This document shows positions 22,289 to 22,519 of a stretch of 33,940 nt of DNA, one piece after another. Within the stretch, counting starts at the first letter, position 1; each line of letters opens with the position of its first letter. Position numbers and translations under genes: made by a program. The notes beneath the pieces are model-generated. The model had not been told where the DNA came from. It was given only the letters and a program-made list of their open reading frames with translations, and searched no databases. Source of the stretch: Bacteroidales bacterium (GTDB lineage: Bacteria > Bacteroidota > Bacteroidia > Bacteroidales > Bacteroidaceae). The stretch spans positions 1 to 33,940 of the forward strand of contig SUXO01000023.1 in the NCBI GenBank assembly GCA_015060885.1, given 5' to 3'.

Positions 22289-22519
22289 CGTGGATACCGA
22301 GTTTCGTCGGCTCGTCGTTAAGGTCCTAGGAAAACCTGTAGAATAAACCAAACAGAAACTGGTATCCACGATGATGGTATAATAGAAAAATCACCCGTAT
22401 AGTGCGCAAGAGGAATGCTTCCCTCCTGCACACTTACGGGAATGGTATATACCAATCCGTAGCATCCACTTCTGAATTGTCTTTGATTCTACGTTTGAAT
22501 TTCCTAGGTTCTAACGACC
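22289..22519 (-). ncRNA. Structured RNA candidate: rod-like ncRNA or long 5' leader
   Basis: No ORF, but many nested complementary segments. Closing helix: 22314-22320 with 22512-22518 (GTCGTTA/TAACGAC) and 22325-22333 with 22500-22508 (CCTAGGAAA/TTTCCTAGG). Inside: 22338-22344 with 22486-22492 (GTAGAAT/ATTCTAC), 22353-22357 with 22470-22474, 22375-22381 with 22448-22454 (TGGTATA/TATACCA). Tip: hairpin 22394-22440 of 21 pairs with G-U pairs and one bulge. The result is a rod of about 205 nt with internal loops, the size and outline of 6S RNA. A further 16-bp helix (22289-22305 with 22355-22370) crosses the closing helix. Strand is chosen by the -7 box TAACTTTG at 22561-22568. Alternatives: leader of the acyltransferase gene, or a small inverted-repeat element. 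Not identified as tmRNA, SRP RNA or RNase P RNA. Confidence 0.45.

What the first reader, a model, noticed from the sequence alone, without database searches (positions are those of the whole stretch)
22312..22519. Rod-shaped structured RNA candidate of about 205 nt
Five nested helices in correct order (closing 7+9 bp, then 7, 5 and 7 bp) lead to a 21-bp tip hairpin that keeps pairing through G-U pairs, separated by internal loops of similar length on both sides. This outline and size resemble 6S RNA, which mimics an open promoter, but I know no sequence identity. The block is non-coding and has a TAnnTTTG box upstream on the minus strand. It could be a divergent 6S RNA, a new small RNA, or the leader of the acyltransferase gene.
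Basis: partly seen in the sequence, partly recalled or inferred. Interest (0 to 1): 0.7.

Follow-up and report, generated by a model that had tools for sequence, protein, structure and literature searches.

The report
Phylum-wide shape-shifting gene leader RNA
The folded RNA seen here is one of about a dozen related copies in this gut-type bacterium's genome and part of an unnamed family of the Bacteroidota; copies typically sit between a promoter and the gene that follows and appear able to fold in two competing ways, so they probably control many unrelated, mostly exported, proteins.

Summary
In detail: on the minus strand the block folds at -86.5 kcal/mol, z -9.5. It is not 6S RNA: the genome's 6S (RF01693, 126 bits) lies on another contig, and the block has no Rfam match.

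It belongs to a large family for which Rfam 15 gave no match. A covariance model finds 13 copies in this genome, 8-21 in each of 11 genomes chosen because they carry it, and hits in 41 of 395 sampled Bacteroidota; all are lower bounds.

The copies are 5' leaders. Of 157 unique copies with a next gene, 145 have it on the same strand, 85 of them starting 40-60 nt after the RNA. A TAnnTTTG box precedes 179 of 199 copies (13.6 expected); 3 of 126 RNA-to-start spacers hold one.

Covariation supports the rod and also two pairings that cross it (H1, H2), which held up on copies not used to build the model. The leader is probably bistable, like an attenuator. In the window it precedes an Acyl_transf_3 gene. 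The signal is unknown and no expression data were available.

The parts
22561..22568 (-). TAnnTTTG (-7 type) promoter box, TAACTTTG; transcription start inferred a few bases downstream, near 22556
   Evidence: located; in the family such a box lies in the 80 nt upstream in 179 of 199 copies, 13.6 expected from shuffles. Here it is nearer to the element than usual
22277..22545 (-). whole leader element as matched by covariance model R2 (R3: 22277-22551)
22526..22545 (-). small 5' hairpin AAAGUGUU/GACGCUUU (8 bp with G-U)
   Evidence: minimum-energy fold of the 295-nt stretch; coordinates
22519..22527 (-). segment a, 5' strand of H1 (UUGUUUUUG)
   Evidence: 9 bp with 22477-22485; family H1 own-versus-swapped z -14.8, -12.5 held-out
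22512..22518 (-). P1 5' strand (rod)
   Evidence: covariation; z -27.5
22500..22508 (-). P2 5' strand CCUAGGAAA; exactly the 9-nt apical loop when the 5' half folds alone
22486..22492 (-). P3 5' strand (rod)
   Evidence: z -19.7, -14.8 held-out
22477..22485 (-). segment b, 3' strand of H1 (CAAAGACAA)
22394..22440 (-). tip hairpin, 21 bp, present in both computed folds; a feature of the long-tip copies
22362..22370 (-). segment c, 5' strand of H2 (CGUGGAUAC)
   Evidence: 9 bp with 22289-22297; family H2 z -8.1, -7.9 held-out
22338..22344 (-). P3 3' strand
22325..22333 (-). P2 3' strand UUUCCUAGG
22314..22320 (-). P1 3' strand
22289..22297 (-). segment d, the tail, 3' strand of H2 (GUAUCCACG)
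21249..22235 (-). downstream gene, membrane acyltransferase (Pfam Acyl_transf_3, E 3.8e-18), start codon 41 nt after the model end

Best explanation
The block is a cis-acting 5' leader RNA on the minus strand, transcribed from its own TAnnTTTG promoter together with the acyltransferase gene. It is one copy of a multi-copy family of the Bacteroidota for which Rfam 15 gave no match. SHOWN by comparison: rod helices P1, P2 and P3; two pairings that cross the rod, H1 (a:b) and H2 (c:d); and the placement promoter - RNA - about 45 nt - start codon. INFERRED: segments a, b, c, d behave as in an attenuator. As the RNA is made, the 5' half first folds as hairpin a:b, which shows the P2 strand in its loop. 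The 3' half can fold as hairpin c:d, with the complementary P2 strand looped out. Loop-loop pairing through P2 can then convert both into the more stable rod (P1-P2-P3, b:c inside, a:d outside). Which fold wins sets whether the tail d is held by c or is free, and so whether it can pair with a hairpin loop just before the start codon (K, seen by eye in many copies and supported for the family, but not evident in this copy) or act as a terminator strand (a T-run of 5 or more lies near the end in 58 of 161 copies). That would change expression of the downstream gene. The signal is unknown; because the genes served are unrelated, I favour a general cell-state signal or an RNA-binding protein over a dedicated metabolite.
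For: Fold: z -9.5. Covariation: RNAalifold predicts 16 pairs on 83 aligned rows, all 16 with both-side changes. On 42 copies not used to build the model, 93.7% of cells pair (56.8% shuffled, at most 42.0% slid), covariation score 0.924 against 0.221 shuffled and at most 0.111 slid. Own-versus-swapped duplex energies, 70 dereplicated copies: P1 z -27.5, P2 -17.2, P3 -19.7, H1 -14.8, H2 -8.1, tail:spacer K -6.9, controls -0.4 and -0.1. Held-out, 37 dereplicated of 42 copies: -20.5, -13.1, -14.8, -12.5, -7.9, -5.5, controls -0.6 and +0.2. One copy from each of 21 divergence classes: -13.9, -11.8, -8.4, -10.0, -5.7, -3.4, controls -1.5 and -0.7. Leader position: same-strand gene downstream in 145 of 157, upstream gene on either strand, 87 to 64; promoter box upstream 179 of 199, in the spacer 3 of 126. 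Both folds are stable: each half alone has mean z -2.8 and -3.8 over 25 copies; window rod -101.7 against -97.3 for the halves folded apart.
Against: No RNA-seq, probing or reporter data. The rod is the more stable fold in 67 of 70 copies, by 9.9 kcal/mol on average, so two-hairpin folding may be only transient. Local hairpin A did not replicate on held-out copies (z -1.0; -3.7 over classes); hairpin B is weak (-2.5; -1.4). A count of the longest gapless tail:spacer match hardly separates own (7.3) from swapped (6.8) pairs, so K rests on the energy tests. The window copy has no clear K pairing and no 5'-terminal hairpin like that of other copies. The T-run is not universal. 12 of 157 copies have the next gene on the opposite strand. 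The intended control a:c also scored (z -7.2 and -3.7); its search window overlaps segment b in short copies, so it is not a clean control. In 'pairs with a change on both sides' (17 of 17) is also reached by 22 of 500 shuffles, so only the other measures discriminate, and the alignment was fitted to P1 and P2.
Confidence: 0.68

Rival explanations
1. A small RNA with its own promoter and terminator that lies upstream of genes and acts in trans. (This and the next rival overlap in part with the best explanation, so the odds do not sum to one.)
For: Own promoter box in 179 of 199 copies; a T-run of 5 or more near the end in 58 of 161 copies; multi-copy sRNA families with terminators are known in Bacteroides (FopS, passages of PMC11697453).
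Against: Same-strand gene in 145 of 157, mostly at 40-60 nt; hardly any promoter box between RNA and gene, 3 of 126 with 6.7 expected; many copies lack a T-run; the tail also co-varies with the spacer before the start codon. A dual role, a leader that also releases a short RNA, is not excluded.
Confidence: 0.17
2. A constitutive structural leader: it protects the 5' end or helps ribosomes start, with no switching.
For: 5' of a gene at a narrow distance; promoter, RNA and gene in fixed order; the rod is the more stable fold in 67 of 70.
Against: The crossing pairings H1 and H2 are kept across 21 divergence classes, which a simple stabiliser would not need.
Confidence: 0.2
3. A divergent or second 6S RNA.
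For: Rod outline and size; 6S RNA is validated in Bacteroides (passages of PMC7366714).
Against: The genome's 6S (RF01693) is elsewhere; no RF00013 or RF01685 hit over cut-off in 101 and 61 genomes; this family is multi-copy and precedes genes, and H1 and H2 cross the rod.
Confidence: 0.02
4. A MITE-like repeat spread by transposition.
For: Dispersed copies, also on 7 plasmid and 2 phage records and 11 viral contigs.
Against: No second near-identical copy in the own genome; copies have diverged with compensatory change; fixed orientation and spacing to genes. Target-site duplications were not tested.
Confidence: 0.03

Closest known systems
Attenuators with four alternately pairing segments (trp-type logic; recalled, from no call)
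   Same: 5' leader; segments pair as 1:2 and 3:4 or as 2:3; output on the gene downstream
   Different: No conserved leader peptide found, unrelated genes served, long co-varying rod helices P1-P3 with P2 able to act loop to loop, multi-copy over a phylum
Bacteroidales-1 / 6S-Bacteroidales RNA (RF01693)
   Same: Order-wide RNA of similar size
   Different: One match in each of 63 matching genomes; no match to this element
FopS / GibS sRNAs of Bacteroides
   Same: Multi-copy RNA family in Bacteroides (14 FopS members in B. thetaiotaomicron, passages of PMC11697453)
   Different: [quoted passage not shown] here a rod with crossing pairings upstream of genes and no Rfam match. FopS sequences were not at hand for direct comparison
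Flavo-1 RNA (RF01705)
   Same: Widespread Bacteroidota motif, some hits in 5' transcribed regions (passages of PMC9723704)
   Different: No Rfam match on 8 members of this family taken from the phylum search

Membership tests
6S RNA (RF00013, RF01685, RF01693) | Covariance-model score at or above the family threshold | tested here: not met
   no match at gathering; at E up to 10 only unrelated chance families; own 6S found elsewhere
6S RNA (RF00013, RF01685, RF01693) | Binds housekeeping RNA polymerase and templates pRNA | not testable with these tools
   needs co-purification and sequencing
cis-regulatory leader RNA (riboswitch- or attenuator-like) | Lies in sense orientation just upstream of a gene, behind its promoter | tested here: met
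   145 of 157 same strand; promoter box upstream 179 of 199, in spacer 3 of 126
cis-regulatory leader RNA (riboswitch- or attenuator-like) | Conserved structure supported by covariation | tested here: met
   covariation score 0.924 against 0.221 shuffled on 42 copies not used in the model
cis-regulatory leader RNA (riboswitch- or attenuator-like) | Mutually exclusive alternative structures | tested here: inconclusive
   H1 and H2 cross P1-P3 and co-vary; that the two sets exclude each other is a geometric inference, and the rod is the more stable fold in 67 of 70
cis-regulatory leader RNA (riboswitch- or attenuator-like) | Signal-dependent change of downstream expression | not testable with these tools
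   no expression data
Intrinsic-terminator attenuator | U-run directly after the 3' hairpin | tested here: not met
   a T-run of 5 or more within the last 25 + next 12 nt in 58 of 161 copies, 4 or more in 98 of 161; not general
Leader-peptide attenuator | Conserved short ORF with conserved stop | tested here: not met
   short class only: candidate codon is a stop in 68 of 108 unique copies, TAC in 36
MITE / mobile repeat | Near-identical dispersed copies | tested here: not met
   own genome: only the element itself and matches of 14-20 nt by DNA search; identical leaders do occur between genomes
MITE / mobile repeat | Target-site duplications | not tested
   -
FopS sRNA | Single-stranded 5' seed followed by terminator hairpin | tested here: not met
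   computed folds are a rod or two long hairpins; direct sequence comparison was not possible

The most novel reading that the evidence does not exclude
A portable, bistable RNA switch of about 180-270 nt forms an RNA-level regulon across the Bacteroidota. Around 10-20 copies per genome place unrelated accessory genes (exported proteins, cell-surface enzymes, a rRNA methylase, a beta-lactamase) under one cellular signal by exchanging a kissing two-hairpin fold for a rod, a kind of control for which I found no counterpart in the held literature.
Probability: 0.42. Interest if true: 0.92.

Novelty: new variant of a known kind. Interest (0 to 1): 0.84.

Why it matters
Bacteroidota are major members of the human gut flora; they lack the classical sRNA chaperones and have unusual transcription and translation start signals (passages of PMC11697453), and how they control their many exported and accessory proteins is poorly known. 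A family with around ten to twenty copies per carrying genome, reaching from Bacteroides to genomes of other orders and classes of the phylum and without a match in Rfam 15, would be an abundant cis-acting RNA of the phylum. It opens a directly testable question: what one signal could make sense for so many unrelated genes?

Tried and rejected
Divergent 6S: rejected. Leader-peptide idea (short ORF M-L-I-L-stop in the short class): rejected, the stop is not conserved. Simple terminator attenuator: not general. First covariance model R1 had a bad structure because one row was misaligned and was never searched with. DNA similarity of the window copy to phages or plasmids: nothing; a diverged copy found 2 phage and 7 plasmid records. 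Phage origin: only 11 stretches in the viral collection match an exact short-class pattern. A common function of the downstream genes: none seen, 83 clusters among 142 genes; over 70 of the 83 cluster representatives 61 Pfam families match, none in more than 2. SnoA, met in the literature search, is a different RNA by its description (passages of PMC13370916).

Limits of counts: the 11 genomes besides the own one were chosen because they carry the family, and only 150 of 504-1919 first-look candidates were scored in each. Searches scored 6 candidates per genome, so 84 of 393 (E up to 0.1) and 41 of 395 (E up to 0.01) are lower bounds. From 182 aligned rows 4 antisense duplicates were dropped, leaving 178, of which 161 were unique and 28 had little flank; 70 remained after dereplication and a flank filter. 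Of 145 same-strand genes 142 were clustered (short or distant ones dropped). 'Signal-like' is a crude hydrophobicity rule, not a trained predictor. The swap tests are not phylogeny-aware. The held-out copies were found with the model, so P1 and P2 are favoured there; P3, H1, H2 and K are not pairs of the model.

Full report
WHAT WAS CHECKED. The block at 22312-22519 folds on the minus strand into a rod as described (-86.5 kcal/mol, z -9.5, 0 of 200 shuffles as stable); the plus strand is weaker (-68.2, z -6.3). Rfam has nothing at gathering threshold in the window except a tRNA at 2424-2495, and only four chance-level matches at E up to 10 in 22000-22900.

NOT 6S. The genome has a Bacteroidales 6S RNA (RF01693, described in Rfam as '6S-Bacteroidales RNA suggested') at G000:C50:36292-36468, 126 bits, over cut-off; 57 of 101 genomes (own and 100 relatives) have one over cut-off, and each of the 63 genomes with any match has one match. 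RF00013 gives 0 of 101 and RF01685 0 of 61 over cut-off, with 1 and 4 weak matches below it.

RELATIVES. DNA search of 100 relatives gave one full-length relative at 71% (G057) and six genomes in which just the two stretches around P2 matched, about 80-130 nt apart. Fetching these showed the same plan with different sequence and a different tip. A covariance model from 9 sequences (the window's and 8 of the relatives) with only P1 and P2 as structure (R2) hit 35 of 44 genomes of the genus and 84 of 393 sampled over the order, at E up to 0.1. A wider model (R3, 87 sequences) found 13 copies at E up to 0.01 in the own genome and 8-21 in each of 11 other genomes that were chosen because they carry the family, for example 18 in Bacteroides xylanisolvens and 21 in B. 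faecis. In a phylum sample it hit 41 of 395 genomes, 35 of them in other orders of the class and 2 outside the class. These numbers are lower bounds, since only part of the first-look candidates was scored (6 per genome, up to 53, 150). Rfam scans of three further sets of 10 loci that hold copies gave no match on the element (at gathering; at E up to 1).

IT IS A LEADER. Of 161 unique copies, 157 have an identifiable next gene; in 145 it is on the same strand, and 85 of those start 40-60 nt after the RNA end; the gene before the RNA is on either strand (87 and 64). A TAnnTTTG box stands in the 80 nt before 179 of 199 copies, where shuffles give 13.6, with 129 of the 179 starting 40-50 nt before the model start; the stretch between RNA and start codon has one in 3 of 126, where shuffles give 6.7. 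So the gene is most likely transcribed through the RNA. In the window the box is at 22561-22568, the element at 22277-22545 and the start codon of an Acyl_transf_3 protein 41 nt further on.

THE GENES. 142 downstream genes fall into 83 clusters; 70 of the 83 representatives were scanned and match 61 Pfam families, none in more than 2 of them. 78 of 106 genes that start 20-90 nt after the RNA look signal-bearing by a crude rule, against 138 of 562 other genes of the same loci. Among the downstream genes are BspA-type LRR proteins, MBOAT and Acyl_transf_3 acyltransferases, DUF4230 lipoproteins, a trypsin/HtrA-like protease, an HxsD protein and Erm(F) and, on a plasmid, the MUN-1 beta-lactamase. 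The same leader, identical over 177 nt, stands 58 nt before a 266-residue ORF in two records (L238, where it is Erm(F), and L248) and 40 nt before a 192-residue ORF in two others (L172, L090), so genes can change behind a leader. Exported and accessory genes dominate; no pathway does.

THE STRUCTURE. Covariation for P1 and P2 is overwhelming: 16 predicted pairs on 83 aligned rows, all 16 with both-side changes; on 99 short-class rows 13 of 33 predicted pairs. On 42 copies not used in the model, 93.7% of cells pair against 56.8% shuffled, covariation score 0.924 against 0.221 for shuffles and at most 0.111 when slid; all 17 pairs have both-side changes, which 22 of 500 shuffles also reach. That alignment is fitted to P1 and P2. 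In an independent MAFFT alignment of 63 short-class copies the eight highest-scoring column pairs all belong to P1, P2 or P3; a 5'-terminal hairpin (7.6 and 6.0 sd) follows among pairs that are not helices. Helices outside the model were tested by comparing the duplex energy of each copy's own two segments with swapped partners. Over 70 copies: P3 z -19.7, H1 -14.8, H2 -8.1, tail with pre-start spacer (K) -6.9, local hairpins A -8.6 and B -4.4; controls -0.4 and -0.1. Over 37 dereplicated held-out copies: P3 -14.8, H1 -12.5, H2 -7.9, K -5.5, B -2.5, A -1.0; controls -0.6 and +0.2. With one copy from each of 21 divergence classes: P3 -8.4, H1 -10.0, H2 -5.7, K -3.4, A -3.7, B -1.4, controls -1.5 and -0.7. 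H1 and H2 therefore stand, K is likely, A and B are uncertain; a count of longest tail:spacer matches hardly separates own from swapped (7.3 against 6.8). The four segments a, b, c, d also show b:c (z -6.3 and -5.7) and a:d (-2.3 and -3.9); b:d is not favoured (+2.7 and +1.0); a:c scored (-7.2, -3.7), but its window overlaps b in short copies. These tests are not phylogeny-aware.

WHY TWO FOLDS. H1 pairs the 5' arm with a stretch beyond P3, and H2 pairs the tip's 3' side with the tail; both cross P1-P3. Linkers of a few bases should not span a helix of 20 bp or more, so I take the two sets to exclude each other (inference). Folded alone, the window's 5' half forms a hairpin with exactly the P2 strand CCUAGGAAA as its loop; over 25 copies the halves are more stable than shuffles (mean z -2.8 and -3.8). 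The rod is lower in 67 of 70 copies, by 9.9 kcal/mol on average; the two folds lie within 10 kcal/mol in 36 of 70; in the window -101.7 against -97.3. RNAfold cannot score loop-loop pairing.

MECHANISM. Best supported: a cis-acting leader. Likely: a kinetic, attenuator-like switch in which the early a:b and c:d hairpins, kissing through P2, either persist or convert into the rod. Open: whether the output is termination (T-run of 5 or more near the end in 58 of 161), translation (tail with the K loop near the start codon) or RNA decay, and what is sensed. The window copy has H1 and H2 of 9 bp each but no clear K.

LITERATURE. Ten searches of the open-access library listed no paper that I could recognise as describing this family. 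Passages only were read of PMC7366714, PMC11697453, PMC2864571, PMC9723704 and PMC13370916. Subscription work on Bacteroides RNA biology could not be read, so parts may be in print there.

Noticed in passing
L238:221-397 and 456-1253; L248; L172; L090: A copy of the leader lies 58 nt upstream of an erm(F) gene (NCBIfam NF012223 above cut-off) in a Bacteroides mediterraneensis contig; the same leader, 177 of 177 bases, stands before a 266-residue ORF in L248 and before a 192-residue ORF in L172 and L090.
   Followed up: partly
L275:4001-4209: On plasmid pBUN1 of B. uniformis a copy precedes the MUN-1 class A beta-lactamase gene by about 50 nt.
   Followed up: no
L326:1143-1324 and 1499-1698; L327:1401-1601 and 1777-1958: Two copies in tandem before one gene in Butyricimonas synergistica, as is known of tandem riboswitches.
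   Followed up: no
L046 around 3035-3060 (G026:C13): 26 bases identical to window 22505-22530, with similar sequence before them, then divergence inside P2: a truncated copy.
   Followed up: no
L157, L076, L077, L080 and others: The commonest downstream gene cluster (16 of 142) is a small protein with 'DVTKFLGIPVDG'-like sequence near its N-terminus; its representative L157 has no Pfam or NCBIfam match.
   Followed up: partly
L179, L187, L244, L265: Pattern hits on contigs labelled Lachnospiraceae, Roseburia, Paenibacillus and Erysipelotrichaceae (all metagenome bins): possibly mis-binned Bacteroidales contigs.
   Followed up: no
L048, L049, L050, L051: 6S-Flavo-like RNAs below Rfam's threshold in four other families of the order, one (L049) also matching RF01693 weakly: the order's 6S seems to grade between the two Rfam families.
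   Followed up: no
window 22834-33646 (+): Genes on the other strand next to the element: DUF4953 met-zincin, TonB-plug protein, SusD-like protein and a dockerin-bearing protein.
   Followed up: no
window 6611-14035 (-): A 2474-residue open reading frame, not examined.
   Followed up: no
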